Translations under genes and position numbers: made by a program | The notes under the pieces: model-generated | The model's input: the letters and a program-made list of their open reading frames with translations, nothing else | What the model was told of the DNA's origin: nothing | Databases searched by the model: none | Shown here: positions 4,409 through 56,008 of the stretch, one piece after another | How positions within the stretch are numbered: position 1 is the stretch's first letter | Layout of the letters: each line of letters begins with the position of its first letter | NCBI GenBank assembly: GCA_964017045.1 | Contig: OZ024804.1 | Coordinates: forward strand, 20,074,537 to 20,138,536 | Source: Omphiscola glabra | Taxonomy: Eukaryota > Mollusca > Gastropoda > Lymnaeidae | DNA: 64,000 bases | Reading direction: 5' to 3'

Positions 4409-5844
4409 TTATATGTATGTCTGAGGAGCGGACTGTCCCAGATCGGTCTTGGCCTCCTCCACTTTCAGGGTTGGAGCCGTCTCGATCACCTCGGCGTACT
4501 TCGGTGGGTACTCCGCAGTTGAGATGGGTTTCTTCTCCGTCTCAGGGAACATCGCGTACGGCACTTCCAGACTCTTGCCGTTTTGCCTGCGCATCACACG
4601 TCTCAGCGCCACCACAAGGATGATGGCGACCACAAGCAAACACAAGACCCCTGCCCCCAGCACTGCACCGATGACAATGACGACCCGGGTGTCGACTCTG
4701 TGATCATCACGACCAAAGTCATCACGACCGGGATACCCGTCGAAATCATCATCCCTCGGAGGCCCCGTCGTAACTGGGGGGAGTCTAACCTCACACTGAG
4801 AGGTGCTCAGGTCTGCTTTCATGAAGTAGTCATTCTCGGGAATGTTGACGAGGTTCGCGTTGAAGCATATGCCTACGCACTGGCAGTCGGCTGGCGTCCG
4901 GTGAACGGATCGGAACTCAAAATACTGTTGTGTAGGGTAGCATCTTGTCTGGTTCATTCGCCTACACGACAGCGTGTACGTTTCTTTGATTTGGCAGGAG
5001 AAGATATTGTAATAAACTGTCGGGTCCTCAATGATTCGTTTAGTTTTAAAAGAGAGCGTTGTTCCTGTCCCGAAGTGGAATGTTCTGTTGTGCACCAATG
5101 TCCTTGCGTCACACATATCCTCATATGACCTGTCATTTGTGTACAGAGAAAAGAAAAAAATGACAATAATACGTTGTGCTAGGATATAAGCTCTTCTTTA
5201 TTATATGTGCTTGGGTAATTGTAATAATCATAATACAGCAACAAGGTTAAGACAAACACATCTTCTTATCAGGTTAATACATTTGTCTTGAATAAAATAC
5301 TTATTTACTTCTTTTCCTTTTTTTAAAAAAAATACTAATAATAAATAAAATGCGCAATGACAAGAAAATAACTAATTTGAATTTTAATAAATTCGGCAAA
5401 ATGAATTTTAAAGTAATTAAAGAGTTTTTAAACAGTTTATTTTAAGATTTAAATGTGTACAGTAAGCTACTTCCAACAAAAACCTTTATACTTTGGTTTT
5501 TATAAGAAAACTATGTGTAAATGTAGTACAAATGCATTAATTCATATGTATATACTTTTCTCTAATTGTAATCGTTTAAATGAATATATGTCAATGCCTA
5601 TATATTTCAATGCCTAACTTTAAAGGCCGGCGTATATCGTTTAACAAATGAATCCTAATAAATGAACTATGTTAGTGTATGAATCGTACACCATCAGATC
5701 AGCATCTTCGATCTTAATGTCATAAGGGTCAATCGCTCCGAGGTAGTACTGCATTGAGAAGCCATCTCCGGTAGGAGGTGAGACGGCCATGGTCACTTGC
5801 AGCACAACTAAAAAGGCCAACGCACAAAGTAAAGGAGATCCCAT
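4409..5844 (-). CDS. Gene A: divergent cluster member, type I membrane protein with Cys-rich ectodomain and PPxY tail
   Basis: Predicted two-exon gene, exon 1 5690-5844 and exon 2 4409-5129, giving 291 residues. Exon 1 starts at the ATG of MGSPLLCALAFLVVLQ, a clear signal peptide of about 20 residues. The donor is GTACGA and the acceptor follows a pyrimidine tract ending ACAG; the phase-2 junction keeps the frame open. The ectodomain has eight Cys (about residues 58, 97, 107, 115, 134, 136, 140, 164). The spacing DPTVYYNIFSC...LSCRRM mirrors the DPDLYL..YQC...FICQRM signature of genes B, C, E and G, so this is a distant relative with three extra Cys. An acidic Asp/Gly/Arg linker precedes a 27-residue transmembrane segment (about 201-227). 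The 64-residue tail contains YPPKYAEV, which holds a PPxY WW-domain-binding motif and a YxxV motif. Exon 2 is visibly more GC-rich than its surroundings. Function is unknown; membrane topology is well supported, ligand and pathway are not. Confidence 0.8.
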
Positions 5845-6520
5845 CTTGATCACCTCTTGAATTCCCTGTCGCAATAACATTGAGAGTAATATACATACAT
5901 ACACTTTGATCAATGCATATCAATAACTAATATGTATAGCACAAGTGGGTAAAAAAGCAACATATTTGTGAATAACAAACAACCACCTGGACGCTAGTAC
6001 ATCATAGATTTTAAAACAAATTTATCAACTAATTATATTGATTACTTGATCACACTTTATTATGTATCGATTTCAAATATTTTATAATCTTTTCCATTCA
6101 GTTGATGTCGTCTGGTTCTCAAGTCAAGATATTACACAATAATGTTTAAAACAAAATTGCTCTATATGTTAAGTTTAAATTACCATTTTAGCTTAAAAAG
6201 TATGCGTTTCTATGAAAACAAGGTAAAAGACCCGAATCATAGTTATCTAAATTATTCCATACCAGAAGTCAATCATTTATATTTGGTAAGTTATAATTTG
6301 AAATTGCCGACAAGAAAAATAAATGTTACCTTAGCTACTGAATAATAAAATAAATTTACTAAACTTTATGTATTTTCTCCAATCTTTACTATTTTCCTAA
6401 CAAATCTGGCACTTTGGAAATACGATGTATAGAAAGCGGTTTACCTGACATGCAGAAGTCTCACAAATGAGACCGAACTCTATCGTTATCCTGCACACTG
6501 ACATTGGTCTGTCCTTGACA
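5845..6520 (-). other. Possible upstream exon(s) of gene A
   Basis: A candidate exon at 6445-6520 is bounded by an acceptor after a nine-T tract (CAG) and a donor CAG|GTAAAC. It can splice to an acceptor (GCGACAG) just before 5865, leaving 21 nt before the gene A ATG. The candidate exon contains an ATG that would be in frame with gene A across this junction, adding about 27 residues ahead of the signal peptide. It may therefore be a 5' untranslated exon, or give an alternative N-terminus that buries the signal peptide. Splice signals are seen directly; use of the exon is inference. Confidence 0.4.
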
Positions 6521-7398
6521 CTGAAAAAAAAAGTCTTTATATTCAAAGTAGGCCACTGCCCGATGCAGTGGTTCTTTATTTGGGGGTCCAAAATCAATAT
6601 ACCCATTTGTGGTATTGTGGGACAATACATTTTAATACATTGATGAGGGATCCTTCGTAATTATTGTAATCGTTTCGCCTGCATAATCGATGACTACCCT
6701 GCTGCAAAACGTCAATATTTCAAATTCAAATTTCCCAATAACGCAGTGGTCGGCGAACCTTTTAAGCCATTACCCCAAAATCTATTCGTTTACCCCAACG
6801 CTACACAGATTTGTAAAGAAGCAAATCATGGACAACTCATTTTCAAAATGTTTCATTGGATCTATTTAATACCCAGAATACAATACAAATATACGAGAAT
6901 CACTAAATAAATATGATAACATTAATTAATAAAATCCTCATCGTAGAACAAAATGATTTTTTTGAAAGAAAAAAAAAAAGATGTTCTCTTTAAATTTGTA
7001 GAAATGATGTTTCATTTTGATGCAATGACGCCATCAAAATTGGGGCCTTTTTAAATCAGTAAATTTGATAATTGTCTTCGGGGTTAAATAATTGATTTCT
7101 ATACTTGTTCCTACGTTAATTAGAGTGAATAATCCTTGTCGCAAAATTATTTTTTTATGCAAAAGACAGCAGCTCTTTGACTGCCTTCTAATGAGCAATT
7201 TAGAAAGTCTTTGCAACATTTGGCTTTATGAGTATAAGCATAAGAGTCATTGTGGGTTGAGGACCACAAATAGTTACACCACCAGGAGGTGAACACTACA
7301 CCGAGGAACACTCTCAGGTGGAGAAAACCAAATAAAAATGGAAAAACAATTCATTGGGGTCCGATCAATCTCATTTGAATAAAACATCTACAATACAA
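6521..7398. other. Intergenic, no gene recognised
   Basis: No coding signature is seen. A stretch near 6742-6770 begins CAGTGGTCGGCGAACC, which resembles a hAT terminal sequence, but no partner terminus or 8-bp target duplication was found. Confidence 0.4.
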
Positions 7399-8975
7399 GA
7401 GCAGGTTGCCAGCATAGCACATAGCCATAAGGACAGGGTGCCACCAGAATATGTTGCCATAAGAGCAAGCTGCCACCAGAGAATGTGGCCAATAGAGCAG
7501 GGTGTCACCAGAGTGTGCAGCCATAAGAGCAATGTGCCACCAGAGTGTGCGGCCATAAGAGCAATGTGCCACCAGAGTGTGCGGCCATAAGAGCAATGTG
7601 CCACCAGAGTGTGCGGCCATAAGAGCAATGTGCCACCAGAGTGTGCGGCCATAAGAGCAATGTGCCACCAGAGTGTGCGGCCATAAGAGCAAGGTGCCAC
7701 CAGAGTGTGCGGCCATAAGAGCAATGTGCCACCAGAGTGTGCGGCCATAAGAGCAATGTGCCACCAGAGTGTGCAGCCATAAGAGTAAGGTGCCACCAGA
7801 GTGTGCAGCCTTAAGAGCAAGGTGCCACCAGAGTGTGCAGCCATAAGAGCAAGGTGCCACCAGAGTGTGCGGCCATAAGAGCAAGGTGCCACCAGAGAAT
7901 GTGGCCAATAGAGCAGGGTGTCACCAGAGTGTTCAGCCATAAGAGCAATGTGCCACTAGAGTGTGCAGCCATAAGAGCAATGTGCCACCAGAGTGTGCGG
8001 CCATAAGAGCAATGTGCCACCAGAGTGTGCAGCCATAAGAGTAAGGTGCCACCAGAGTGTGCAGCCTTAAGAGCAAGGTGCCACCAGAGTGTGTGGCCAT
8101 AAGAGCAAGGTGCCACCAGGGTGTGCAGCCATAAGAGCAAAGTGCCACCAGAGTGTGCGGCCATAAGAGCAAGGTGCCACCAGAGTGTGCAGCCATAAGA
8201 GCAAGGTGCCACCAAAGTGTGCAGCCATAAGAGCAATGTGCCACCAGAGTGTGCGGCCATAAGAGCAAGGTGCCACCAGAGTGTGCAGCCATAAGAGCAA
8301 GGTGCCACCAGAGTGTGCAGCCATAAGAGCAATGTGCCACCAGAGTGTGCAGCCATAAGAGCAAGGTGCCACCAGAGTGTGCAGCCATAAGAGCAATGTG
8401 CCACCAGAGTTGGCAGCCATAAGAGCAGGGTTCCGCCAGAGTGTGCAGCCATAAAAGCAAGGTGCCACCAGAGTGTGCGGCCATAAGAGCAAGGTGCCAC
8501 CAGAGTGTGCAGCCATAAGAGCAAGGTGCCACCAGAGTGTGCAGCCATAAGAGCAAGGTGCCACCAGAGTGTGCAGCCATAAGAGCAATGTGCCACCAGA
8601 GAATGTGGATATAAGAGCAGTGTGCCACTAGAGTGAGCGGTGATAAGAGCAAAGTGCCACCAGAGAATGTGGATATAAGAGCAGTGTGCCACTAGAGTGA
8701 GCGGTCATAAGAGCAAAGTGCCACCAGAGAATGTGGATATAAGAGCAGTGTGCCACTAGAGTGAGCGGTCATAAGAGCAAAGTGCCACCAGAGAATGTGG
8801 CTGTAAGAGCAGTGTGCCACTAGAGTGAGCGGTCATAAGAGCAAAGTGCCACCAGAGAATGTGGCTGTAAGAGCAGTGTGCCACTAGAGTGAGCGGTCAT
8901 AAGAGCAAAGTGCCACCAGAGAATGTGGATATAAGAGCAGTGTGCCACCAGAGTATGTTGCCATAAAACCAGGGT
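7399..8975. repeat. 32-bp minisatellite array (about 49 copies)
   Basis: Tandem units of 32 bp built on GCCATAAGAGCAAGGTGCCA plus CCAGAGTGTGCG or CCAGAGTGTGCA. Most units differ at a few sites (GCA/GCG, AAT/AAG, rare CTTAAG). From about 8590 to 8950 the array changes to a 64-bp higher-order unit in which a GAATGTGG-ATATAAGAGCAG unit alternates with a GTGAGCGGTCATAAGAGCAA unit. Because 32 is not a multiple of three, long open frames cycle through all three phases on the minus strand; these encode low-complexity Trp/His/Leu repeats and are not treated as genes. Confidence 0.95.
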
Positions 8976-9264
8976 GACATCAGAACACACGGACTCGGAG
9001 TAGGTCCATTGAAAAGTCTATATAACAATGACGCCAAGATTTTAACTCACTGGGTGAAACTCTAGTGAAACTCTAGTGGCGCAGGTGAGCATTAGATGAA
9101 ATAGGCCAGCATGGCGTATGTAACGCAAGAGGTGACCTTATGCTAGCGGCAAAGCCACTTTGTAAATCAATTGTAACCACAACATGTTGGTTGCCATTCT
9201 TAATTGCACTGTCAAAATGCAGTGGTGCCAGCAACAACAAAATCATTTAAAAACACGTTAAAAT

Positions 9265-9630
9265 ATGTATTATGTTTGTATGTGTTTATGAGTGCATGTG
9301 TGTGTTTGTGAATGGATGTGTGTATGCATGCATGTATGTATGTATGGTTGTGTTTATGAGTGTATGTGCGTCTTTGTAAGAGACTGTGTGTATGCCTGTA
9401 TGAATGTATGTATGTGTTTTCTAAGTGTATGTTTGTGTTTGTGAATGACTGTATATGCATGTATGTATGTATGTATGTGTTTATGAGTGTATGTGTGTGT
9501 TTGTGAGAGACTGTGTATATGCATGTATGTATGTATATATGCATATGTTTATGAGTGTATGTGTGTGCTTGTGAGAGACTGTGTATATGCATGTCTGCCT
9601 GTATACATTATGTATGTATATATAGAGTTA
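9265..9630. repeat. TGTATG-rich tandem repeat, about 60-66 bp units
   Basis: Degenerate tandem repeat combining ATGTATGT runs with the phrase GTGTTTATGAGTGTATGTG and GTTTGTGAGAGACTGTGTAT. About five to six units are visible. Open frames on either strand here are repeat artefacts. Confidence 0.9.
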
Positions 9631-10373
9631 GTGTCCGTGGCAAGTCATGCGCTTCTATCGTGCAAGACTTTTTTTTTTTTCATAATAGACATTCGAGGTG
9701 TGTTCCGCAAAGTTGAATCGTCACAACAAGTTCAAGGCCATTCGGCAAGCTGTTATTTTAAAAGTGCAACTTATCTTTTATTTAGAGCAGAGGATTCAAT
9801 CTTATGTTCAGTGGGAGCATTAAGGTCTACGGTGCTCTTCTCGGGGGCTCGACGGCCGCTCCGTGATATCAAACAAATATCTATTGAAATACAAGATTAA
9901 CACATTGGGTAGGCCTGAATGCAATTGTTGACTGGTGTTTCCAAGTGGCCCTGCATAATAAAAATGAATTGGACTTGTGGAATTAATTTTCTACCATGGT
10001 CTTATATTTAAGATGAGCCAGACATCCATAGCATGCACGATACATTGAACATATAATTCTTTTTTTTTTTTTTTTATGAAACAACATTAAGAGTACATTG
10101 ACAGTTGAGATCTATAAATCGATTTATCCGACCAGAACTCGCCCAACATGATCGTTCTTATATAAGCAACTTCTGTTAATGTGCATGGCACGTTTGGTCG
10201 CAACCATTTTGCCACCACCGGCTAATTCGCCCCCAAAGGACGTTTCACCAACGGTCGCTTCTTCGGCAAAGATTTAGAAATTATTCAAAACCCAAATTTA
10301 TAATAAAATTGATGCCAAGATTAAAATGGGATTTCAACAATGTATGATATTCAAGAACGTTTATTTAGATTAT
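9631..10373. other. Intergenic, no gene recognised
   Basis: No recognisable coding exon or mobile-element terminus. Long T runs near 9668 and 10061. Confidence 0.4.
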
Positions 10374-10577
10374 TTAAGAGCAGGGTGCCAGCAGAGCATG
10401 TAGCCATAAGGACAGGGTGCCACCAGAGTATGTTGCCATAAGAGCAGTGTGCCACCAGAGTGAGCGGTCATAAGAGCAAAGTGCCACCAGAGAATGTTGC
10501 CATAAAAGCAAAGTGACTATGTGTTTATAAGTGTATGTGTGTGTTTGTGAGAGACTGTGAGTATGCATGTATGTATG
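10374..10577. repeat. Outlying copy of the 32-bp array joined to the TGTATG repeat
   Basis: About 4.5 units of the 32-bp minisatellite (10374-10516) are directly followed by one unit of the TGTATG-type repeat (10517-10577). In the main locus the same two repeat types are separated by about 290 bp. This is therefore a rearranged secondary copy rather than a continuation. Confidence 0.85.
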
Positions 10578-10616
10578 ACAACATTAAACAAATATATGTT
10601 GACATATTTACAAGTG
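10577..10616 (+). repeat. 40-bp direct repeat, copy 1 (partner 12257-12296)
   Basis: GACAACATTAAACAAATA followed by ATGTTGACATATTTACAAGT recurs at 12257-12296 with one mismatch. At the partner site it is preceded by ATAAGAGCGCCAGCA, a decayed piece of the 32-bp minisatellite unit. The two sequences probably travelled together. Confidence 0.85.
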
Positions 10617-10851: not shown

Positions 10852-11376
10852 TTAGACAATAATCGCTATTATTAAAAGACAGGAAAACAACAACAAACAA
10901 CATTCGAATGTAAATGTAACCTGACAAACTTCACCCCAGTCAAAGTAGGGGGTTTGTGTCACTGGGGCTTGTGTCACTGGGGCTTGTGTCACTGGGGTTT
11001 GTGTCACTGGGGCTTGTGTCACTGGGGCTTGTGTTACTGGGGCTTGTGTCACTGGGGCTTGTGTCACTGGGGTTTGTGTCACTGGGGCTTGTGTCACTGG
11101 GGCTTGTGTCACTGGGGCTTGTGTCACTGGGGCTTGTGTCACTGGGGCTTGTGTCACTGGGGCTTGTGTCACTGGGGCTTGTGTCACTGGGGCTTGTGTC
11201 ACCGGGGCTTGTGTCACTGGGGCTTGTGTCACTGGGGCTTGTGTCACCGGGGCTTGTGTCACTGGGGCTTGTGTCACTGGGGCTTGAGTCACTGGGGCTT
11301 TTGTTGCAGGAGGGTTTTTTATCGGAGGGGGAGCTTTGGTTGAACTTCCGTTTCAAAATGCTAAAAATATTAAAAT
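10852..11376 (-). CDS. Possible terminal exon: Thr/Pro repeat stalk with hydrophobic C-terminus (uncertain)
   Basis: Minus-strand frame made of about 23 copies of the pentapeptide TQAPV, then a short unique segment (PYFDWGEVCQVTFTFE) and the hydrophobic end CCLLLFSCLLIIAIIV before the stop at 10852. This layout fits a mucin-like, O-glycosylatable stalk with a GPI signal or terminal membrane anchor. Two observations favour coding. Most single-base variants among units are silent in this frame (GTG/GTA, CCA/CCG, ACA/ACT), with only Ala-to-Thr replacements recurring. The frame also ends in a plausible anchor. Against it, the 15-bp unit keeps all frames open, and the best upstream acceptor (TATTTTTAG before 11360) leads into another frame (SDTSP)n if entered in phase 2. 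No signal-peptide exon could be assigned; a candidate small exon is at 12589-12646. Confidence 0.35.
10950..11300. repeat. 15-bp minisatellite, about 23 copies
   Basis: Near-perfect tandem array of GGCTTGTGTCACTGG. Variants are few (GGTTTG, GTTACT, CACCGG, GAGTCA). The low divergence indicates recent expansion or maintenance. The array underlies the possible TQAPV coding repeat on the minus strand. Confidence 0.95.
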
Positions 11377-11956: not shown

Positions 11957-11987
<31 letters not shown>

Positions 11988-25673: not shown

Positions 25674-27238
25674 CTATTGCGTGTGTATTGTATTTGGTAT
25701 CACATCATCTGCTGGTAAGTTTGTATATACGTTTAAGTCCGAAGTTTCATCCAAATTCTTTCCATGCTGTTCTTGTTGCAAAAAACCCCATGGCCAGTTG
25801 TGCTGACGTCGTTTGAAAATCAAGCAACATGCTACAGCAGACGACACTACTGTGGAGATTGAGAGTGTCCCAATAATGACATGGATGTAAACAGGAATGT
25901 GTCCATGGCATTTGATAGGATATGTTCCGGTTTCTTCCATTCTGGGACTTTGACTGGACACAACATCAGCAGATGACGATGACGTCGTGATTTGTGTAGC
26001 ATCTGTTTCAGAGGAGAAGACTGACATCGACTGTGATTCCAACAATGAAGCTCTAGTTAAAGTTGTCACTGATGTCAAAAGAAGAATGTCTTTTGGTTTT
26101 AATGTATCTTTTTTCGAAGATGACGTTGTCAGCATAGAGCTGGTAATAGATGATGAAGTCGATGGCAGCCTTGCAGATGATGGCAACTTTGATGTTTGAT
26201 CAAGACAAGAATTAGAATCTGATTTTGTGTCGGGCTTCGGTTTGTCGGCTTGTTTGTCCCTCGGTAACACTAAATCCACAGTTATGTCAAACAAATGTTT
26301 ATTTTCAAGAATCTGATCGACGCCGGACAGTATTGTAATGCTATCATGGTTACACGACGTGTTGGCCATATGAAATTTGTACCACGTTTGTCCCTTTTGT
26401 CGTTTATAGGTCTTTAACATGCGTTGACAGATAAAAAAATAAACGTAATTTCTTTCGCATTGGAATGACCTCAGATATAGGTCAGTGTCGTCGTTTGTGA
26501 AATAATCAATGACTGAACTCAGCTTGTTACCAGGAATTAAGGTGCTCCTTTTCGCTTTAGTAGTATCATTGCACAAGGTCATATACAACCTGTTAAGCAT
26601 AAAAAAAATATTTTTAATAGACTTTAAGTTGCCGAGAAACATATTTTAAATGTGTGTAGTTAATATAAATGAATTCAAGCCATGCAACTAACTGCAATCA
26701 TAATACATTTTGCAATACGAAACAACTAGAAACATTTAGACATTAGAGTCCGGTTGGCGGTATGACACTGACACGCTAAAAAAAAAGTCCGGCAACTCCT
26801 GCGATACCTTTGGTGTCCAACTGTATCATACACATGACGTATCACTGTATTTCCAGTTGAGTTGATAAAGGACATCTTCTGACTGTAAGCCACCGTTTTC
26901 AGCTCATAAAATCCCAGGCTGGTGATGTCACCAAGTGAAAATATCACCATCACCCCCACCCCACACCCCCCTACACACACACACATTTTTTTATACTGAC
27001 GGATGCCAGAATTAAAACCAACCATTTTTTTTTATTATAACAATTTTTTTTTAAAAATATGTTTAAACGCTGCTTACAATCTCAAGTCTCCAAAATTGAT
27101 TCCACTGTAACTTTTTTTAGTATATGAAATGTTAAAGAAGTTTATAGTTTTGCTGTCGACAACTTCTTGTCCTCCCCTTCCACGCGTGCAGCAGCCGATG
27201 AGTAGCCAGAAGATAACAGACAGCAACGCGTTGCCCAT
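25674..27238 (-). CDS. Gene C: cluster member, type I membrane protein with YTNL tail
   Basis: Exon 1 27078-27238 (161 nt, 12 nt longer than in B, E, F and G) and exon 2 25674-26589; 358 residues. Exon 1 starts MGNALLSVIFWLLIGCCTRG, a signal peptide, and contains SYSGINFGD matching the family YGGVKFG phrase. Donor GTAAGC, acceptor CTTAACAG, phase 2. The ectodomain has LYMTLCND, TDLYLRSFQCERN, FFICQRMLKTY, MANTSC and ILSGVDQILENKHL. The fifth conserved Cys (in LQC/IECE of B and G) is absent here, while extra Cys occur in the stalk. The stalk is rich in Ser/Thr/Lys. Transmembrane segment about 286-312 ends ACCLIF before KRRQ. The 46-residue tail has NVYTNLPADDVIPNT; YTN is a YxN (Grb2-type SH2) consensus as well as YxxL. 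Function unknown. Confidence 0.87.
26700..27025. other. Gene C intron, part
   Basis: Intron 26590-27077 contains CA/AC and C runs. The open frame seen on the minus strand here is not flanked by splice signals and is treated as spurious. Confidence 0.5.
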
Positions 27239-29639: not shown

Positions 29640-31339
29640 GTCCTACATACAGACAAAAGCTTTCCAGGCACAAAGATGACTTGCAAGACAGCTGACTACT
29701 CATCGTTGAAAATAGCTTGGGTCATCTTTGCATGCCACAAAAAATAAGAACAACTCTAAATAAACAATACTGTAACATCGGGCAGTCTTTGTCCAAATGC
29801 TATCTTGACTATAATCCGGTGCATTTATGTGTAATGCATGACTCATAACATTTTATTCGTAAAATACAACAACTGGTTCATTTAAAAGTGGCATACACTT
29901 TACAAATGTTTGTAGGATAAAAGAAATGTAAGTATGGGCGATTTTTTTCCTGACATACTCCTTCACCCTTTGATGCTCATAAGAAACGTACACATAATGT
30001 GGTATTAATTTGTGGCGAAAATCCATGATAACAAGCTAATAGAGTCCATGTATGCCATTTGTGTGTGTTTGCTGTTTAAGATAAACAATTAAAACACTTT
30101 AAACAGTGCTAAGATGTTCAGAAAGAAAATGTAATAAAACCTGAACATAATGAGGAAAACGTTAGAAAAAAGAAAACAAATATTATGGAATATGTTAAAA
30201 AGTTTCATTGCAAATTTTTTCAGTGTATTATTTAAATTTCATAACAAATAAAAATGTTAATACCCCGACTGATTCCCCACATCTGACCGATAAACGATGC
30301 TGCTGGCCGCCATCCATGGCTTGTCATGTAAAAGTTCTGGGGTGGGTGGGGTGAATAAGCATTAGTTTTTGTTTTGTCTCTATACAGCTGTTCTCTTTTA
30401 CATAAATGTATTATATTTCATTGTCACGATTATATCTCTTTTTCTAAAATTTTTATGTACAGCGCTGTGAGCCCAGTCCTAGGCTGGGGTACCGCGCTAT
30501 ATACGACAACTAATAATACTAATTAAACAATATATATGTTTTTGTAATGTGTCAACCTTATAGCACAATTATATTAGAGTTTATTCCAAATAGTCAAAAT
30601 AGTTCCACAGTACTCATATATTTAATGAAAATCATCAGTATACGTTTTTCGTAAATCGTAAATTGTATTTAAAAAATTTGCTATCAGAAGTCATACTGTC
30701 ATGCATTGTTTTTAACCTTTTAAATATTGTAGCACGTACTTAAATGGTGGTAATTTAGATGGTCGGTGTGACAAAGAGCATGACACTGTCACCGAAATAG
30801 TCATATGTAATTGCTACTAAACACAGTGTTACGAACTATTACTTGCATTAAATAGGTCAATGGCTTCGTATAGTCTAGTGGTAATTAGTAACACCCTCAA
30901 GATCAAATATTTGATGTGGTTATTTTTGCAGCAACTCATCCGATTGCATTCTTCCTCCCACAAACTGTCTGTAACTCAATAACTACTTAAACTATAATAA
31001 AGACAAACGTCACCACTCGTTCCCAAAACGTCACCAATACAAACCATATAACAACAGCCACACATATAATCTCTTCACCAAATGTGCTCAGTAAAAAATA
31101 AATTATACAAGCCACAAAGCATAGCCAACACTCATTGAACACAGCATTAAAACTCAGCAAAATACCAAAAAGAACATGGTTGTGTGTTTGCGTAAGGTTA
31201 CACAATGTATCTTGTTGATTACTATATTTGACCTAAAGCATACTTTTCGGTTTAAATTTCCTGCATAACAACGACGTAACCTTTGGCAATCTTGAAAAGT
31301 TTATTAATTTTTTTTAAATAGTTTACTTTTTATCTCATT
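29640..31339. other. Intergenic with SINE-like scraps
   Basis: A tRNA-like A-box phrase (TATAGTCTAGTGGTAA) near 30870 and GCAACTCATCCG near 30933 resemble a decayed SINE. The repeat fragment at 30460-30530 also lies here. The hydrophobic minus frame at 30987-31205 has no supporting gene context. Confidence 0.35.
30460..30530 (+). repeat. Interspersed repeat fragment (partner 21845-21925)
   Basis: Shares CCTAGGCTGGGGTACCGCGC T and an ACTAATAATACTAAT tail with the copy in the gene B intron. Confidence 0.6.
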
Positions 31340-31465
31340 TAAACTGACCTAACCATAAACGGTTCTGGAATATGAAAACTTATAAATATGAAAAAAATGT
31401 TAAATTATTATCGACATCGCCCAGTCCTCGAGTTTGGCTGTGTACAGAGACGCACAAAATTAATA
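31340..31465 (-). pseudogene. Relic D: orphan exon 1 of the cluster family
   Basis: Minus-strand sequence aligns to exon 1 of gene B: CVSVHSQTRG followed by GDVDNNL and, after a frame change, KFSYSRTVYG. The initiator ATG is lost (ATTAATTTTGTG in its place), there are in-frame stops, and the frame shifts between the two halves. No exon 2 is found downstream. The upstream promoter-like block is still recognisable at 31735-32060, so this is the remnant of a whole duplicated gene that lost its main exon. Confidence 0.75.
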
Positions 31466-31734
31466 TTTATACGAAATATATTACTTCAAGAACTAAAAAT
31501 CTAAATTTGCTTCCTTTTTTTTTTTTTTTTTTCGTTGCTGTTTTTATGGTGTCTTTATTTAATTTCAAGAATTAAAACTATACTAAAGTAAGGTAAAGTG
31601 TAAGTTACGAAGACACTTCGAAACAAATACAAACTGAACCTCAAATTTTTGTCTAATATCAAATGGTTCCTGGAAAAAAAAAAGATAATGTAAGAAATTA
31701 AAAGCTTTAAACGGACGCGAAGTTAGTTCATGAG

Positions 31735-36169: not shown

Positions 36170-36940
36170 CGGCAATCAAAAAGAAAAAACAACAACAAAT
36201 AGTGCCAACAATTATTTGTCTTTATTTTTCTTTATCATTACTTTCTTTTTTATTGAAAAAGTGTAAAGAAGAATAAGTGGTATACTATTAAATGTGCTGT
36301 TGAAGAAACAATATGCCAAACATATAATAATACAATTTTAAATGAAACTTTAAAATAATAATTTGAAATTACAAAATGTTTATGGCATAAAACATTTAAC
36401 GTAACTAAAGTAACTAATGAACAACGCTAACATAAGTAATTTACTACAATATTTTGTGGTTGTTCATAATTTAAATCGAAACCAATTGCAATTTAATACT
36501 AAACAGTATAGAAAAAGAAATGTCTTCTAAACAAACAACATTTTACAACTAAAAAAAAATATTTTAAAAATATATGTAATATATTTCTCTGGGGGTCATG
36601 ATCAGCCAATCATAGACCGGAAACGTAACTCTCTTAGTGACAATAATTACTAAAATATTGATTATTTAGATCGTGTTACCTTTAGAGGACCTTTATAGGA
36701 CCTTTAGAGGACACGAATCTTAATTCTGACTGACTTGGTGAAAAAAAAAAAGAACATTCATATCTTTCAGTCCTAACTTTAAGGCATTTGTATTGTATTT
36801 TGAGAAATGATTCTTTCGTATTGTTCTTCATTGTACATGTTTCTTGTATATTATGATTTTTGACTATTTTAATCCAAGTAAAAAAAAATTTACGTCACAA
36901 TTATAATGTAGAAAAAAGATCAATGACGTCCAGATTTTAA
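36170..36940. other. Intergenic, no gene recognised
   Basis: AT-rich. A short GACCTTTATAGGACCTTTAG duplication near 36685-36710. Confidence 0.4.
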
Positions 36941-37500
36941 ACAGACGTTAAGATAAGCTGCCCAAAGTACCGTCAAGAAAACAGACGTTAAGACAAGTTG
37001 CCCAAAGTACCGTCAAGAAAACAGACGTTAAGATAAGTTGCCCAAAGTACCGTCAAGAAAACAGACGTTAAGATAAGTTGCCCAAAGTACCGTCAAGAAA
37101 GCAGACGTTAAGATAAGTTGCCCAAAGTACCGTCAAGAAAACAGACGTTAAGATAAGTTGCCCAAAGTACCGTCAAGAAAACAGACGTTAAGATAAGTTG
37201 CCCAAAGTACCGTCAAGAAAGCAGACGTTAAGATAAGTTGCCCAAAGTACCGTCAAGAAAACAGACGTTAAGATAAGTTGCCCAAAGTACCGTCAAGAAA
37301 ACAGACGTTAAGATAAGTTTCCCAAAGTACCGTCAAGAAAACAGACGTTAAGATAAGTTGCCCAAAGTACCGTCAAGAAAACAGACGTTAAGATAAGTTG
37401 CCCAAAGTACCGTCAAGAAAACAGACGTTAAGATAAGTTGCCCAAAGTACCGTCAAGAAAACAGACGTTAAGATAAGTTGCCCAAAGTACCGTCAAGAAA
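36941..37500. repeat. 40-bp minisatellite, 14 almost identical copies
   Basis: Exactly 560 bp made of 14 units of ACAGACGTTAAGATAAGTTG CCCAAAGTACCGTCAAGAAA. Only a few single-base variants occur (GCAGAC in two units, AGACAAG in one, AGCTG in the first, AGTTT in one). The array ends 163 bp past the stop codon of gene E, so it is in or just beyond its 3' UTR. The homogeneity implies a very recent expansion. Confidence 0.97.
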
Positions 37501-37662: not shown

Positions 37663-39302
37663 CTAGATACAGATTGTAATACAAATAAATAACAGAAGAC
37701 ACCGGGAGATGGATACAAATAATGGTGTCAATGCTGAAGTAGAAGATGACTGAAAATCAGGTGATTGATTAATAGATTTCGGATTATTGGCCCTTGATTC
37801 ATTGACCCGTGACACATTGGCCCATGATTCATTGGACCACGATTCGATGTCTCTCCTCTCACGCTGCAACACACTACCAACTGTTATTTCGAAGAAGTGC
37901 TTATTTTCAAGTATCTGGCCCACGCCGGACAGTATTGTAATGCCTTCAAAGCTACACGGCGTGTTGTCCACACGAAATGTGTACCAGCGTTGCTCCTTGT
38001 GTGGAACTTGGGTCTTAAACATGCGTTCGCAGATGAAATAAAAAGCGTCATTTCTTTCGCATTGGTATGATGGCAGGTAAAGGTCAGGGTCGTAGTCTGG
38101 TGGGAAACTCCGAATGAATTCATTCAGCTTGTCACCAGCAGCTGAGGTGAGCGCATACGTTCGGGTAGTATAGTTGCATAACGACTTGTAGAATCTATAA
38201 ATATAACTAAAATTGTTAGATAAGATTCCGCTGGGTTGATGCTTAAAAAAATCATAAACTTAAAACTAATTATTTTTTTAGTTTTCAAAATTTTTTTAAA
38301 TTCACTTTCATTTTTAACTCATTGTTCAATACGGAGCAGTTATAAACATTTGGGAAATACCTATTGCAATGATTATTATTATAATTTATTTCATGTGTGA
38401 TTATGACATTTTATAAAATATAATTAGTAGATTATTTATTGTATATGTGCAGATATGCAACAGTTTTAATATAGATAAATCATCCTGCAACGTTAGTAAA
38501 TGTGTTGTAAGAAATGTGCAGTCGTGGGAGGATTAAACACAGCTTAGGTGCAGTCGTGGGATGATTACACACAGCGTAGTATGAGCAGACATCCTAGGTT
38601 GGCGAGTCTTTCCTACCATACGTTTCTGCTTGTCGTTGGCTTGTTTTTTTTTTTGTTGTTTTTTTGTGTGTGTTATGTCTCACAATATTTTATTTAAAAC
38701 TTGAAAATGTTGTTTTAATTATGGGCCACACATGTCATATGAGGGAATCACATATTCTCTAACAATCCAATGTTCTATGTGTCTGATCAGGGCGTAATGT
38801 TCTACAGCAACGTAAGTAAAGATGGTTCTACAACGTACGGAAGCCTTAGTTTTTATAATAGGGATTATGACATAGTATACTAAATTGACTTGTTGTTGTG
38901 AAAGCAGACCGTGCTGCATTCGAACTCTAATAAAATATATATGTTGTAATTGCTCAGAGAAATACGTATACCAGGCAATGACGCAGGCCAGTGCGTCTAA
39001 GAATATGTATTGATTAGAGGTTAAAAATAACTACATTTTTGTTATAAGGTATAATTATATTTTGCTAACAACATAATTAAAAACCGTACACATACATTAA
39101 ACTAAAGCAATATGCATTTTAATGATCTATTTTTTAAAAAAAATTTTGCTTACTTTTTCATGTTTCCAAATTTGACTCCACCGTAAACTGTTTTATTGTA
39201 TGATGTCTTAAAGAAGTCTAAATTCTTGTCAATATCTTCGAGTCCCTCTGTTATTTGTATGCAGCAACCGACAGTTAGCAGTAGGATCATGCACAGCAAC
39301 AT
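37663..39302 (-). CDS. Gene E: short cluster member with hydrophobic C-terminus, possible GPI-anchored form
   Basis: Exon 1 39154-39302 (149 nt) and exon 2 37663-38194; 226 residues. Signal peptide MLLCMILLLTVGCCIQITEG; exon 1 also has KTVYGGVKFGN. Donor GTAAGC, acceptor TTTATAG, phase 2. The ectodomain is intact and closest to gene G: RTYALTS, LNEFIRSFPPDYDPDLYLPS, YQCERNDAFYFICERM, VDNTPC, ILSGVGQILENKHF. The fifth Cys is replaced (SVLQRERR). The stalk is cut short: where gene G continues TSLPMTSS into a long stalk, gene E reads TPLFVSISRCLLLFICITIC I and stops. Four N-x-S/T sequons (NES, NVS, NES, NQS) lie just before. There is no cytoplasmic tail. The Ser-rich stretch followed by a terminal hydrophobic run fits a GPI-attachment signal, although an Arg precedes the run. 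It could alternatively be a tail-inserted or poorly anchored secreted form. Confidence 0.82.
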
Positions 39303-46400: not shown

Positions 46401-46407
46401 TGTCGTT

Positions 46408-48035
46408 TTAATTTGGTTCATCTTTTGCCATCCCTTCACTGATCTCGATATTTTCTGATATATTTTTACTGTTGTCGACAGAGATTTCTTCCAGCATCAA
46501 AGATCCAGTGTTACATTTTCTTCGTCTCTTCATAAACAACCCACAGACGGTGGCTGACCAGCCGACAATCGTCACTCCTAACGCCACTGTAAGAATTATG
46601 ACCACGTACAGGTCAACCTTTTTTCTTGTATCAGTAGCCGAGGATGTTACATTGCCAGTGGTAGCGCAGGTAGACGAAAAACAAGACCTAACTTCAGGTG
46701 ATGGATTTGTTGGATATTTGTTAACGTTTTTTGTTGAAATAGATGCAAAGAGTGACGTCACTTTCGATGTTGATTCTGGTAAAGAAGACGTTTCACATTC
46801 AGATTTGGAATCAAAACTTGATCCTGATATGGCTTTGAATGTGAATTTTGAATTTGTGTTCAAAGATGATCGTTGAATTGTGGTTGTAGTAGAGGCTGAT
46901 TGTGTCGACTTTTTTGTTTGCGATGAACTTAATATGTCAGTTGATCTCTTGGTTGCTGAGGTGTCGCTGCTCAATCTCTCGCAGGTTTTACCTAATTCTA
47001 ATGTTATGTCAATAAAATGTTCATTTTCCAGCGACTGATCAACACCGGACAATACATTAATGCATTTCATATGACATAAATCATTGTCTAGTTGAAATCT
47101 GTACCAGCGCTGAACGTAATGAGGTGTGTAATTCTTTGAAATTCTTTGGCATATAAAATAATAATTGTGTTTCTTTTCACACAGGAAAAAAGACTGAACA
47201 TTCTTGGGGTCCAAGTTTTTAGGAAACTCGTTAATTTTGGTTGAAGTTGTGTTTAATGAAGTTCATGTTACCGTGTAATTCAAATGTCGAATCTGTGCAC
47301 AGGGCAGTGTGCAGTCTGTATGGAGGACATAAAGAAATCAATAAACATTATTGTTACGTGTAACACATGTTTCCTGTCAAAAGATTGAATACAAGTAAAT
47401 TGTTTAAATGAAAAGCTATGTACGAACATATCCGTCACAAAATAGTTTGATGTGCACCTATTTGAAGGGAGTAGCTGACGCTAAAAAAGTAAAAATTATG
47501 CAACATGAAATGCCACACTTAGACAAACATTTAACTTTTCAGCATAAAATATTAGCACATTTAATTATGTAAATGTCCCAATCAAATCTTGATCTCACTG
47601 AACTAATTTTTTTTTTAAATAGATGTTTCTAGATTTAGCAATGGTTTTCAATAATCACTAAACTTACATACATTTTCCTTATTTGAGATCGCTTTACTAT
47701 GAAGCATATTTTAAAATTGGTGACATTAAGTGTATAAATGTCTTTTGACCTTTTGACTGTTTAAATTACTCAGTAATTGTATGTTATGTGAGTCGTCGAA
47801 GATTAATTCAAAGATCTAAACATTTTAAATTATGATTTTATTTAATTTAAAAAAAAAAAGTATAATACATTACGGAATCACTTTACTTTTTGATATCTCC
47901 AAATTTTACTGATCCATACAGAGCAGTCTGGTAACTTCATTTCTTGATGTACATTCTTGGGTAAAGAGATGTTTGAGACTCGGCCTGCACAATGAATCTG
48001 GCAGCAATCAAACAAATGAAGCGGGGTTGAAACAT
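46408..48035 (-). pseudogene. Gene F: disrupted cluster member
   Basis: Exon 1 47887-48035 has the same 149-nt length as in B, E and G, with start MFQPRFICLIAARFIVQAES and the family end YGSVKFGDIKK and a GTAAAG donor. Codon 33 is TGA, at the place where gene E has Thr (FFKTSY). Exon 2 46408-47315 begins after acceptor CCATACAG with LHTALCTDSTFEL and carries a net +1 shift before KINEFPKNLDPKN, since the intervening stretch is 37 nt rather than a multiple of three. After that the frame is open for 268 codons: CEKKHNYYFICQRISKNYTP, RWYRFQLDNDLC, LSGVDQSLENEHFIDIT, CERL, a Ser/Thr stalk, a transmembrane segment (DLYVVIILTVALGVTIVGWS) and a tail without any tyrosine. Two independent lesions argue for a pseudogene; the intact remainder suggests it is recent, or that an alternative splice form bypasses the lesions. 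Confidence 0.75.
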
Positions 48036-48039
48036 TTTT

Positions 48040-50515: not shown

Positions 50516-50522
50516 AGAAATA

Positions 50523-50594
<72 letters not shown>
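50523..50594. repeat. (TA)n microsatellite
   Basis: About 36 nearly uninterrupted TA units, a likely length-polymorphic and hard-to-assemble site. Confidence 0.95.
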
Positions 50595-50595
<1 letters not shown>

Positions 50596-50836
50596 CATTA
50601 AAAGGCCTTAAAAGATGTACTTTTTCTGATATTTCTACTCCATTTAGTTATGATATTAAGCCTGGGTGCAGTTACTCTTTGCAATCTATAGTGATGCTAT
50701 TAGGACTGGGCTCACTTACATTTTACAATCATTATTTATACAATGTACATACAGGTGTGTGCGAGTCGGTATAAAAGAGCATAAATTGTGCACGTTTAAA
50801 ATGCCCAAAAGCGCCACTAGTTTGCAGTCTTTAATA

Positions 50837-50984
50837 CAGACACTCTAATTCAGTTCATCATGTTGTGGAGACCCCCCAAACATTCAATTAGTTTCGTTGC
50901 TACTTCATAAATATGTGTTATCCGATGATCTTAGGCGACCTCTGTGTAAGGGTCGATTCGAACCCAAAAGGTTGAGAACCGCTG
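50837..50984 (-). mobile_element. hAT-type non-autonomous element, internally deleted
   Basis: Read on the minus strand it starts CAGCGGTTCTCAACCTTTTG GG, continues with GTCGCCTAAGATCATCGG and ACACATATTTATGAAGTAGC AACGAAA, and ends with a CTG. It is flanked on both sides by the exact 8-bp duplication CTTTAATA (50829-50836 and 50985-50992), as expected of hAT transposition. The internal phrases match a widely distributed Charlie-like hAT MITE family known from vertebrates and invertebrates; I do not assign the subfamily. Only 148 bp, no coding capacity. Confidence 0.8.
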
Positions 50985-50999
50985 CTTTAATAGTATCCG

Positions 51000-53229
51000 A
51001 AATACGTTGTGGAAATCATATGAAATTAATAATTACCCTTTAGAAAATCAACACTATTTATTTGTATAAATTATTATTATTGCTATAAAAGTGTTACTTA
51101 ATGCCTAATGTTGATTGTTCCATATAGACCTTCACTAAAATGGAAGTAATGTAGATAAATATATATTATCATAAAATCAATTACGTCCCTTGTCCATGAA
51201 CCTAGCCTCCCCCAAATTCAAACAACGTGATGTAGCAAAGACTGAATTGTAAGAACTTATACTTCACAATTTTAGAAATAAATTATATTAAGAAAAAAAA
51301 AATAAGGACTTATCTGGGTATTAAGATCACAGTTGCAGAATAAATTACTCTTTTTTACCCAAACTTAAACTTATAAAATATAGATAATAGTGCAGGAAAA
51401 TGCGATGATCCATGTACTTGAATATCTGTTGTATCCAAATATTAATTGAGATACTTTGTTAAGAGTTTTAAAATTATATTTTTTATATGCACTTTGATTT
51501 TAAATAAATTACAGGGTGCGTTGACATAAAAAAGATAAAAAGGAATCAAGTAATTCAATCGTATATAATTGGTATAGTGCCAATTTTCTTCTTTGTGGTC
51601 GTATCTGATAAATACGTTTTTTTGAAATTCCACAAAATACGCAAATGAACGATATAACTTTAGTAAAAATCAGAGAAGAGAAACAATTGGGGAAAATAAT
51701 ATTTTGATTTAATTTTTATTGATAAAGTAAAATAAAAAATACGTTGTATATATGTTGAAAAAATAATATTCAAAATTTATAACAAACTGAAGAAGAAACT
51801 GAAAGCACAAAATGTTATTAAAATGAAACGCAGTAAGGTAAATCAAGAAACGATTATAAATGATGGCGACATTAATGATGTGCAACATTTCTTAGCTGTT
51901 CGCTACAGAAATTAAAATAACCGTAGTGTTACACTAAGCATGGACTAGAAACAGTGAAATATTATTAATTTGGATGCCGTGCACAGACAATACAATAAGA
52001 ACCACTAAAGTAAGTCCTCTTACCACTGTATATTAAAAAAAAACCTTTTTTAGGAGATACATACATACATAATATATATATATATATATGTATGTATATA
52101 TTTTTTTTTAATTCCATCTCTGCGGCGCTACAACACTTGTAGGGATTTTACTTGAATAACCACTTCCTTTCACTCAGACCTAACTGGTGCTTTTTCTTTT
52201 CCATATTTGAATTCCAAGCTGCTGTAGATTTTTTTCTTTACCACACATCACTCTAAGCCTAGGTCTGCAATTTAACCGTTTTCCATTGTGTTTCTTTTTT
52301 ATGTTGCACCTTCTTTACTCCTCTTTATCATGTGGCATTCTTAATCAATTATATTTTACTTTAAGCGAAAATTACTTTAAATTTATTTTATTTGCACATG
52401 TTGTTTGTTGAATGTACTATTTGAATATTTTAGATCTAAGTAAAAAGTATTGACGCAACCACTTTAAAGAAGAGAAGAATCGCATATGCATATTCTGAAC
52501 TGCAAATAACAGGCTGGCTGAGAAAGAAAATATACCACCTGATCCTTTAATAATTACTATTAATAAATTATAATACCATATCTAAATTGCTTATTTATGA
52601 CAATTTGCAGTCCCATTGTATTTTATACTATTCCCTTCTGCTCCCCCCCCCCCCAACCGCACACAAATAATGTTTGCGATAATGTATGAGCTTAGTAAAT
52701 TCTAGTAAGATATTTAAATGGTTTATGTATGACAATGTGAAGTGCCATTTTTTTTCCTATTCCATCCCTCCCGCCCAAAACACAGCACACTTGTCTGGTA
52801 ATGTCTGGTTGTTCCACCTTAAATAGTCATAACAGATAACGTAATTCTTTAAGGAACCTATTCCAAGTGCATACCTTGTTTCAATTTTGATTTCTCCACA
52901 GGGTTAAAATCAACTGGCATGAATAAAATGAAGATCAATGGAATTAATGTTCAAACATAAAAAGTAACTACTAATATGAATGGTTAATAAATTAACTAAA
53001 TTAATTAAAACTGAAATAACGAGGCAAAAAAAAAAAACAAGACGAGGAAATATCAAAAGTTAAATAAGAGGAATACAAATTTGGAAAAAATAAAAATGAG
53101 TTTTATACAAAAAATGTGTTTAGATAGAAGGCAAATAAGAGGTAAAATATGACTGTCTTTGATTTTTTTTCTTCTTGTTGTTGTTAAAGATAGGGAAAAG
53201 AAGACTATGAATAATCAATTAATCATTGT
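51000..53229. other. 3' flank of gene G and spacer
   Basis: From about 51660 to 52930 it aligns to the 3' flank of gene C (24540-25060). TA/CATA repeats near 52055-52100 and a C run at 52644. No gene recognised. Confidence 0.5.
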
Positions 53230-53515
53230 GTGTTGATCATTGTGATACTTTCTAGTTTCTAACCATTGCTACTGATGAGCTAATTGTGGTGTTTCTCTTT
53301 TTTTTTTTGGTATTATTTACCAAGTTATTTGATTGAATAATAAGTCCCGTATTACTGATTGAATGAGTTATCTTATTAATCACTTACCGAGTTATATATA
53401 CCGTTATGAGTGTTATGTGTACTACTCAAAGCGTAGGTTCTGTGCTACTTAATAAGTTAGCAGGGCATTATTTCATGTTTGTGTCCTGTTTCAGCTATTG
53501 TGCGTTATGTAAAGC

Positions 53516-56008
53516 TCAGTTATTTATTGCGTTTTCTGTATTAGGTATCACATCGCCTGTGGGTAAGTCAGTGTATTCGTTACAGTCCGAGGCTTCATCC
53601 ATGTCCTTCCCATGATGTTCTTTTAGCAAAAAACTTCCGGTACATTTGTGATGACGTCGTTTTAAAATCGAAGATAACCTTACGACGAATAACACTACTG
53701 TGGAGATTGCGAGTGTTCCAATGATGATATAGATGTAAACAGGAGTGTGTCCATGGCATGTATTATAATATGCTCCTGTTGTTTCCACGTCCAAAATTTG
53801 ACTGGACATAAATCCAATGGATAACGATGAGGTCAAGATTTGTATAGTATCTGTTTCAGAGGAGAAGAGGTCTGACATCGACATGGCCTGCGATCGTGAC
53901 AATGGACTGGTTGAAAAATCCAACAATGAAGTTGTGGGTAGGGATGCCATTGATGTCAAAAGAGGAATTTCCGTTGGTTTTGTTGTAATGTCTTTTGCAG
54001 ATGTAGTTGTGGGCCCAGAGCTTGTCATAGGTAATGATGTCAATGCTAAAGTAGCTTGTGACTGAAACTCTGATGCTTGATAACAAGAAGTCAATTCTTT
54101 GTTGGATTCTGTTTTAACGGCTTGTTTCTGACACTGCAACACTGAATCAACAGTAATGTCGACGAAATGTTTATTCTCAAGTATCTGATTAACGCCGGAC
54201 AGTATTGTAATGCCACCAAGGCTACACGACGTGTTGTCCACGTGAAATTTGTACCAGTTTTGTCCCTTTTGTGGAATGTGGGTCATTAACATGCGTTGAC
54301 AGATGAAATAAAAAGCGTCATTTCTTTCGCATTGGTATGACTGCAGGTAAAGGTCAGGGTCGTAGTCTGATGGGAAACTCCGAATGAATTCATTCAACTT
54401 GTCACCTTTGGCTAAGGTGAGCTCATACGTTCGGGTGGTATGGTTGCATAACGTCAGGTAGAATCTACAAATATAATAACATAAAATTATTAAAAATACC
54501 TATATAATACTGGTTTGTACTAATTTTTTACTTTTTTTTTTAAAATGTATAACTTTAAAAAAAATCACTGTCATTTTTAACGTCAAAAACACTAGTGAAA
54601 AGAAATACAAAGTTGGAAAATGCCTACTTCATTTGCTATTATTATCATTTAAATTAATGTGTGATTCTGACATTTTATAAAATATTATCTAATAGATTAT
54701 ATATTGTGTATGTTATTGGTGAGCAGCAAGTTCATATTCATAATTCACAAATAACGTTATCAAAAATCATTAGAAGACGTGTGCACTCATGGAATCATTA
54801 AACGCAGCTAAAGTGTTAACTTATAACTCTAAAGTAAGCAATGTTACAACCTTAACTGAAAATTTAGGGAGAATTGTTCATTTAGAGATTTTAGTATTTC
54901 TAAGCCAGCAAAGAACCCTCCTCACACGGCGTGTAAACACAAGAGAGGAACACATGTACGAAAGAGGTTTACAAAATAAAAAAGAAATTTGTTTGACGAT
55001 TACAAATAAGTGCCTTAAAAAGTGCTCAGGATGTTCTGTTGTGGTTTCCTACCACAGCATTTAACAACGGTCGTGGAGCCTTGTAATCAGAGTTTTCTGT
55101 CTTTTGTAGTATCAGACGCCAAACCTAGGTTGGCGAGTATTTTCTGATGTTTGTATTTTTTTGGTTATGTGGGGCTATGTTGTATTTACAACTAGATAAT
55201 ACAGTTTTAATTATAGGGTTAACATTTCCCGTGACTTGTTAAATGTTGTGTTATAACCCAATGTAAATAATGTTTCTGATCAATCGTATCCGGAAATTTC
55301 TTTGAAAGAATTGTTGTCGACGGAAAATTGATCGACGGAAGTTTGATCAAACTGTCGAATTTTATTTTCAGTTCACACGATCAAATTTTGCGTCAAATTG
55401 CCTTTTCAACGCATTCTTTTGTTTTACTATATAACAAATTGCGTTTTTAAAAAATGATGCAAAATTTGACTGCGTGAACTTAATTATAATTTGATAAATT
55501 CTCATTTCAACCAAACTTCCATCGAACTTCAAACAAATTTCCGGTATCCCTGATCAATGAGTCAGCAACGTTGGCTCTAAAACTTACGAGGCATTAGTTT
55601 CTATAATAGTGATTATAAAATAATAAAATTGTAATTATGAAAGAAGATAATTTTGCACTCGAACTCTATTGGCAATGACATCGGACAGTGCGTAGAAGAA
55701 TATTTATTGATTATACATTAAAACTAACTACATTTGTTGTACGATATAAATATATTTTGCTAAAACACATAAATAATTCCCTACACAAATATTATTCTGA
55801 AGCAGAATAAATAATAATAACGGCGAAATTTTCATAATCTATTTTTAAACTTTGTTTACTTTTTAACGTCTCCAAAAATAACTCCTCTGTAATTTGTTTT
55901 ACTACAAGATGTCTTAAAGAAGTTTAAATTCTTGTCAATATCTTCAAGTCCTTCTGTTATGTGTATGCAGCGACCGACAAGCAGCAGTAGTATCATGGAC
56001 AGCACCAT
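53516..56008 (-). CDS. Gene G: cluster member, type I membrane protein with YTDL tail
   Basis: Exon 1 55860-56008 (149 nt) and exon 2 53516-54464; 365 residues. Signal peptide MVLSMILLLLVGRCIHITEG is close to gene E; donor GTAAAC, acceptor TTTGTAG, phase 2. The ectodomain has FYLTLCNHTT, LNEFIRSFPSDYDPDLYLQS, YQCERNDAFYFICQRM, VDNTSC, ILSGVNQILENKHFVDIT and LQCQKQ, with all five conserved Cys. The stalk runs about 165-290 and resembles that of gene C in its end (CHGHTPVYI). Transmembrane segment about 292-311, followed by an Arg and a basic stop-transfer region. The tail ends NEYTDLPTGDVIPNTENAIN N, sharing DVIPNT with gene C. Gene G thus looks like E in its first half and like C in its second half. 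The 1.4-kb intron holds a MITE. Function unknown. Confidence 0.88.
55285..55549. mobile_element. MITE copy 1 (Mutator-like, 9-bp target duplication) in gene G intron
   Basis: Inverted ends CGTATCCGGAAATTTCTTTG and GGATACCGGAAATTTGTTTG (right end read on minus). Exact 9-bp duplication CTGATCAAT at 55276-55284 and 55550-55558. The corresponding place in the gene E intron (CTGATCAGGG at about 38785) has no insertion. Same family as 60146-60444, which it also matches internally (TTTTCAGTTCA, CGTCAAATT, TTCAACGCA). A 9-bp duplication and long terminal repeats suggest the Mutator superfamily. Confidence 0.8.

What the first reader, a model, noticed from the sequence alone, without database searches (positions are those of the whole stretch)
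4409..56008. Tandem cluster of an unrecognised two-exon membrane-protein family
Six genes plus one relic exon, all on the minus strand, share a short signal-peptide exon, a phase-2 intron, a 4-5 Cys ectodomain (CN(E/D/Y/H)(S/T)..., YQCERN, YFICQRM, NTSC, ILSGV-Q-LENKHF) and mostly a stalk plus transmembrane segment. I cannot match the ectodomain to a named domain. Constant ectodomain core with fast-changing stalk, anchor and tail is the pattern of lineage-specific surface receptors.
Basis: partly seen in the sequence, partly recalled or inferred. Interest (0 to 1): 0.85.

Follow-up and report, generated by a model that had tools for sequence, protein, structure and literature searches.

The report
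Snail array of unknown surface receptors
A pond-snail chromosome carries a long row of related cell-surface protein genes with an outer domain that we could not match to any described family and inner tails rich in signalling-type motifs, which looks like a fast-changing set of recognition receptors, probably for defence.

Summary
The window (C12:20,074,537-20,138,536 of a 745 Mb genome; nearest proteins are Lymnaea stagnalis) holds six loci of one two-exon family on the minus strand: five open (A, B, C, D, F), one broken (E), plus one relic exon 1. Two unnamed L. stagnalis proteins match A and B across the predicted splice junction.

The window is only part of the array: an ectodomain profile finds 16 copies in 204 kb, all on the minus strand. 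No credible Pfam, PDB-sequence or fold match was obtained; three searches of 5.8 billion proteins returned only the two L. stagnalis proteins.

Two new facts point to signalling receptors. Tails are enriched in YxxL/V/I motifs (26 against a shuffle mean of 10; not in ectodomains or at other spacings). In the left flank, two gene pairs share ectodomains (96% and 82% identical) but carry different tails, while tail types match between pairs: a paired-receptor layout best explained by ectodomain gene conversion.

Closest known kind: Biomphalaria GRC/PTC clusters, linked to schistosome resistance. Homology to those proteins could not be tested; two GRC marker domains lie on another chromosome. Immune function is inferred, not shown.

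The parts
5690..5844 (-). gene A exon 1 (hydrophobic N-terminus, start of ectodomain)
   Evidence: matches L. stagnalis P0002
4409..5129 (-). gene A exon 2 (8-Cys ectodomain, short stalk, TM, tail with PPKYAEV)
   Evidence: 85% identical to P0002
22148..22296 (-). gene B exon 1
   Evidence: matches P0001
19839..20796 (-). gene B exon 2 (ectodomain, long Ser/Thr stalk, TM, tail with NEYTDL)
27078..27238 (-). gene C exon 1
25674..26589 (-). gene C exon 2 (ectodomain, stalk, TM, tail with NVYTNL)
31325..31484 (-). relic exon 1 with stops
   Evidence: tblastn
39154..39302 (-). gene D exon 1
   Evidence: 74% identical to F exon 1; donor
37663..38194 (-). gene D exon 2 (ectodomain 85/115 identical to F; ends in a hydrophobic segment, no tail)
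47887..48035 (-). locus E exon 1 remnant with in-frame stop; GT donor kept
46408..47315 (-). locus E exon 2 remnant, frame broken near its start; most of ectodomain, stalk and TM readable
55860..56008 (-). gene F exon 1
53516..54464 (-). gene F exon 2 (ectodomain, long stalk, TM, tail with NEYTDL)

Best explanation
The window is part of a head-to-tail array of single-pass surface receptors in a lymnaeid snail; the 16 profile-scored ectodomain copies span about 170 kb. Exon 1 gives a hydrophobic leader and the first part of the ectodomain; exon 2 gives the Cys-rich core, a Ser/Thr-rich stalk, one transmembrane segment and a tail. The ectodomain binds ligands (inferred). Binding leads to tyrosine phosphorylation of YxxL/V/I tail motifs and recruitment of SH2 proteins (inferred from motif enrichment). 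Copies arise by tandem duplication, some are broken (E, its right-flank copy, the relic), and stalks diverge fast (shown). In the left flank, neighbours with one ectodomain but different tails exist (shown), best explained by gene conversion of the ectodomain part as in vertebrate paired receptors, so that one specificity would feed two signals (inferred). The most likely role is recognition of parasites, microbes or altered self by blood cells, as proposed for the Biomphalaria GRC/PTC clusters (inferred).
For: Family and intron phase; leader exons of flank genes. Array and strand. Junctions agree with L. stagnalis proteins. Tail motifs: 26 YxxL/V/I in 15 tails (D, without a tail, left out), shuffle mean 10.1, 0 of 2000 shuffles reach it; the reversed motif 9, spacing +2 6, +4 6, ectodomains plus stalks 18 against 18.1; 10 representatives 18 against 6.7. 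Paired layout: G5-G6 ectodomain 110/114 identical with tails 43/181, G1-G2 94/115 with tails 47/183, while G1-G5 tails are 131/238 and G2-G6 tails 71/189. Informative columns: exon 1 8 and ectodomain 32, all for G1G2|G5G6; stalk+TM 7 against 1 and tail 26 against 0 for G1G5|G2G6. A 372-bp tract of 98.1% identity covers the G5/G6 ectodomain part and 26 bp of intron; exon 1 with its surroundings is 78% alike, and no blastn match follows the ectodomain. Known analogues: PMC4361660, PMC7494358 (passages); paired receptors with ectodomain conversion: PMC12447643 (passages); YxxI/L/V 'core motif' in Botryllus receptors: PMC12065747 (passages).
Against: No expression, ligand, haplotype or infection data. 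dN is below dS in 13 of 14 ectodomain pairs (in the other dS could not be computed), so positive selection is not shown. YxxL/V/I is also an endocytosis-type motif (recalled). Tails of H, R2 and E have none. Shuffles do not fully control for relatedness of tails. The paired arrangement lies outside the window. A recent segmental copy, or an assembly error, could also give the near-identical G5/G6 tract.
Confidence: 0.6

Rival explanations
1. Self-recognition or gamete-recognition receptors: the array mediates sperm-egg, allo- or cell-cell recognition, not defence.
For: Allorecognition loci in Botryllus and Hydractinia also carry ITIM/ITAM-type motifs in their receptors (PMC12065747 passages). 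Fast paralogue turnover and ectodomain homogenisation fit reproductive proteins too.
Against: None of the calls speaks to tissue. The snail TM1 clusters with a known phenotype affect parasite resistance (passages).
Confidence: 0.2
2. General surface or adhesion glycoproteins: tail motifs serve endocytosis and the array is ordinary tandem duplication.
For: Long Ser/Thr stalks; YxxL/V/I overlaps sorting motifs (recalled); D has no tail and H, R2 and E have no such motif.
Against: Long tails with 3-5 motifs (G1, G3, G4, G5) and 12 in the L048 tail exon; near-identical ectodomains joined to distinct tails.
Confidence: 0.17
3. The locus is the lymnaeid copy of the Biomphalaria GRC (PTC1) or PTC2 itself.
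For: Same kind of cluster and size range; weak sub-threshold TMEM154 matches around the TM in G4 and G5 (E 0.015, 0.024), a label also given to some PTC1/PTC2 genes (PMC10875847 passages).
Against: GRC holds a hyaluronidase and a paraspeckle-component gene; the matching Pfam domains PF01630 and PF08075 (choice of NOPS recalled) were found only on C5, at 42.9 and 7.9 Mb, not on C12. As they lie 35 Mb apart here, that neighbourhood is itself not kept, which weakens the test. No planorbid protein came up. PTC2 synteny was not tested.
Confidence: 0.1

Closest known systems
GRC/PTC1 (Grctm1-7) and PTC2 TM1 gene clusters of Biomphalaria
   Same: Cluster of single-pass membrane protein genes with large extracellular parts and few or no named domains, with paralogues and gene gain or loss (passages).
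   Different: GRC has FN3 domains in four of seven genes and neighbours whose marker domains lie on C5 here; both clusters are defined by haplotype divergence and association with resistance, untested here.
Vertebrate paired receptors such as CD300A/CD300C
   Same: Related genes with near-identical ectodomains, consistent with gene conversion, and different tails.
   Different: Ectodomain is not recognisably Ig; both tail types carry tyrosine motifs; opposing signals are not shown.
Botryllus FcoR and Hydractinia Alr allorecognition receptors
   Same: Clustered invertebrate receptors with YxxI/L/V, ITIM or ITAM-like tail motifs (passages).
   Different: FcoR are Ig-domain proteins; no homology is claimed.

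Membership tests
Biomphalaria GRC/PTC TM1 cluster | Several single-pass TM genes clustered, 166-530 codons, TM displaced from the N-terminus (PTC2 wording) | tested here: met
   Five open window genes of 226-368 aa with one TM-like segment in the C-terminal half besides the hydrophobic N-terminus (hydropathy only)
Biomphalaria GRC/PTC TM1 cluster | GRC neighbourhood with hyaluronidase and paraspeckle component | tested here: not met
   PF01630 only at C5:42.94 Mb, PF08075 only at C5:7.89 Mb; the array is on C12. The two are 35 Mb apart, so the test is weak
Biomphalaria GRC/PTC TM1 cluster | Sequence homology to Grctm or PTC2 proteins | not testable with these tools
   Their sequences were not at hand; three protein searches returned no planorbid protein, weak evidence because of the word filter
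Biomphalaria GRC/PTC TM1 cluster | Highly divergent haplotypes and effect on parasite resistance | not testable with these tools
   One assembly only; no phenotype data
Paired receptors (CD300A/C type) | Neighbouring genes, near-identical ectodomain, different cytoplasmic tail | tested here: met
   G5/G6 and G1/G2 in the left flank; not shown for A-F in the window
Paired receptors (CD300A/C type) | Ectodomain homogenised by gene conversion | tested here: met
   372-bp 98.1% tract ending at the ectodomain border, exon 1 region 78%, opposite groupings of ectodomain and tail; no formal conversion test was run
Paired receptors (CD300A/C type) | One inhibitory (ITIM) and one activating partner | tested here: inconclusive
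   Both tail types carry YxxL/V/I; tail I of G1 and G5 has SGYE(R/V)V, which fits the ITIM consensus as recalled, the listed tail II motifs do not; no signalling data
Ig, lectin or other known ectodomain fold | Fold or profile match | tested here: inconclusive

The most novel reading that the evidence does not exclude
A mollusc has its own paired-receptor system built on a non-Ig, so far undescribed ectodomain: genes come in neighbouring pairs whose ectodomains are kept alike by gene conversion while two older tail types give different signals, and tail-less copies such as D act as decoys or anchored partners.
Probability: 0.4. Interest if true: 0.82.

Novelty: new variant of a known kind. Interest (0 to 1): 0.62.

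Why it matters
Snail membrane-protein clusters are among the strongest known genetic determinants of parasite resistance, yet their ligands, folds and signalling are largely unknown. A second snail family with such an array, with a recognisable Cys core, tail motifs and paired genes, gives concrete handles (ectodomain, tail types I and II) for testing how molluscs combine recognition signals. It would also suggest that the paired-receptor solution arose outside the Ig and lectin families.

Tried and rejected

The alignment with exon-1 rows (A4) misaligned all exon-1 rows but A's; it was dropped and A5 made without the others. R2 was left out of the profile because it lacks the FxCxRM pattern. 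In the leader-exon search 12 starts were examined: 8 gave a convincing exon; R2, two lone tail exons and E did not.

GRC synteny was considered and not supported. PRIMA1, TMEM154, LapA and similar Pfam hits lie below cut-off around the TM. The DNA part printed no rows for any pair, apparently because of an unsupported scoring setting; it was rerun. Paper searches. In some searches no listed title treats a lymnaeid cluster of this kind; I saw 15 of 134, 10 of 10 and 10 of 26 papers as listings. Papers were read as passages only.
Full report
WHAT IS THERE. The window lies at C12:20,074,537-20,138,536 of a 744.8 Mb genome in 37 contigs. Its nearest proteins are from the pond snail Lymnaea stagnalis, so it is most likely a lymnaeid; gene A is 85% identical to P0002 over exon 2, so it is probably not L. 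stagnalis itself. Six loci of one family lie on the minus strand. Five splice into open proteins of 291, 368, 358, 226 and 365 aa with GT..AG phase-2 introns. The sixth, E, has an in-frame stop in exon 1 and a frame break in exon 2. One relic exon 1 lies near 31.4 kb.

OUTSIDE SUPPORT FOR THE MODELS. A profile search of 5.8 billion proteins gave 2 hits at E <= 0.01 among 6,815 candidates, both unnamed L. stagnalis proteins: P0001 (360 aa) and P0002 (291 aa). They match B and A through the predicted junctions. Two further searches, P0002 whole (987 candidates) and P0001 residues 20-166 (48 candidates), returned only the query at E <= 10. These searches need shared 5-residue words, so remote relatives may be missed.

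THE ARRAY IS LARGER. A whole-genome search with F gave 7 matches at E <= 0.001, all on C12 between 20.094 and 20.150 Mb. Twelve 10-kb blocks on both sides held more copies. Window-relative exon-2 frames (names are mine): G1 -57638, G2 -51261, G3 -31480, G4 -27058, G5 -19885, G6 -11498, H 74325, R1 106441, and the divergent R2 122948. Leader exons ending in phase-2 donors were found for 8 of these 9 (not R2). A profile of the ectodomain, scored at E <= 1 against 4,741 reading frames of 204 kb, found 16 loci, all at E 7e-13 or better and all on the minus strand, C12:20,013,708-20,181,711; 14 of them were in the profile, two were not (-60828, E 7e-13; 65199, E 8.7e-33). Whole-genome searches with P0002, G2, R1 and G4 gave no match on another contig better than E 0.02. 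On C12 but outside the fetched region, a TM and tail frame at 20,445,414 on the plus strand (E 1.9e-7) suggests that the region goes further, and one at 23,572,173 is marginal (E 0.01).

ANATOMY. Exon 1 carries a hydrophobic leader and a stretch that the model shows as two strands, at low confidence (residues 21-40 at pLDDT 41-47). Exon 2 holds the Cys core: two cysteines 9-10 apart (YQC..FICQRM) are nearly invariant in A5, followed by W or F and, in A, R1, G1, G2, G4, G5 and G6, a CxxxC element such as CVGIC. The predicted structure of P0002 puts strands at 28-35, 38-46, 62-69, 76-83, 91-100, 104-111, 120-125 and 136-141 with a helix at 47-58, and the TM helix at 199-236. Overall confidence is moderate. 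No credible database match came out, which does not show that the fold is new.

TAILS. Fifteen tails (D has none) hold 26 YxxL/V/I motifs; 2,000 shuffles average 10.1 and never reach 26. The reversed motif (9) and the neighbouring spacings (6 and 6) are not enriched, nor are ectodomains plus stalks (18 against 18.1). With 10 representatives, 18 against 6.7. Twelve of 15 tails have at least one; H, R2 and E have none. Relatedness of tails is only partly controlled.

PAIRED GENES. In the left flank the order along the minus strand is G6, G5, then (after G4 and G3) G2, G1. G5 and G6 ectodomains are 110/114 identical and G1 and G2 94/115, but tails within each pair are only 24-26% alike; tails match across pairs, G1 with G5 (131/238) and G2 with G6 (71/189). 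Every informative column in exon 1 (8) and ectodomain (32) groups genes by neighbour; 26 of 26 in the tail and 7 of 8 in stalk+TM group them by tail type. The G5/G6 identity of 98.1% spans 372 bp, from 26 bp inside the intron to the end of the ectodomain; exon 1 and its surroundings are 78% alike and no blastn match follows the ectodomain. The simplest reading is an old pair with two tails, duplicated as a block, with ectodomains homogenised within each block by gene conversion. No formal conversion test was run. This is the pattern described for CD300A/CD300C (PMC12447643, passages). In the window, D and F may be a weaker analogue: ectodomains 85/115 identical, D without a tail.

EVOLUTION. 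Between species, A is conserved (ectodomain 131/147) and B less so (117/144; stalk 79/128 with 11 gaps; TM 27/30; tail 35/46). Between paralogues dN is below dS in 13 of 14 ectodomain pairs, dS not being computable in the other, so positive selection is not shown. E and a right-flank copy are 86.5% alike over 2 kb, and both are broken.

COMPARISON WITH KNOWN SYSTEMS. Biomphalaria GRC/PTC1 holds seven clustered single-pass proteins, four with FN3 domains (PMC4361660, passages); PTC2 holds eight, without known domains besides the TM and without homology outside gastropods or to GRC (PMC7494358, passages). A wider TM1-rich region surrounds PTC2 (PMC11426442, passages). This array works like such clusters as far as its anatomy goes, but membership is not established: domains marking two GRC genes are on C5 here, themselves 35 Mb apart, and the proteins could not be aligned.

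VERDICT. Function in defence is inferred.

Noticed in passing
10852-11352 (-): Open frame of about two dozen APVTQ repeats (15-bp unit, 23.7 copies) ending in a hydrophobic C-terminus; looks like a mucin-like stalk with anchor.
   Followed up: no
7423-8984: Minisatellite, 32-bp unit, 48.8 copies, open in several frames.
   Followed up: no
36939-37500: 40-bp tandem repeat, 14.1 copies, 98% matches, just downstream of gene D.
   Followed up: no
C12:20,004,920-20,006,368 (L048 384-1832, minus): 482-aa open frame with a TM-like segment and a 416-aa tail holding 12 YxxL/V/I motifs; not among the ectodomain hits.
   Followed up: partly
window-relative -283 to -573: TM and tail exon 45% identical to gene A over 97 aa just left of the window; no ectodomain hit between -10203 and 4412.
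   Followed up: partly
L013 8985-9512 and L049 8476-9195 (both minus): Two related frames (R2, R3) with a similar start (LYGLMC, FKSMC) and a TM, but another Cys layout; a possible sister subfamily.
   Followed up: partly
window-relative -44249 to -41251 and -14990 to -13125: Transposon-like open frames (reverse-transcriptase-like and transposase-like by eye) between array genes.
   Followed up: no
about 42.5-43.0 kb and 61.4-61.7 kb; 41.4-41.8 kb and 60.1-60.7 kb: Similar translated stretches in two places each (by eye), suggesting dispersed repeats.
   Followed up: no
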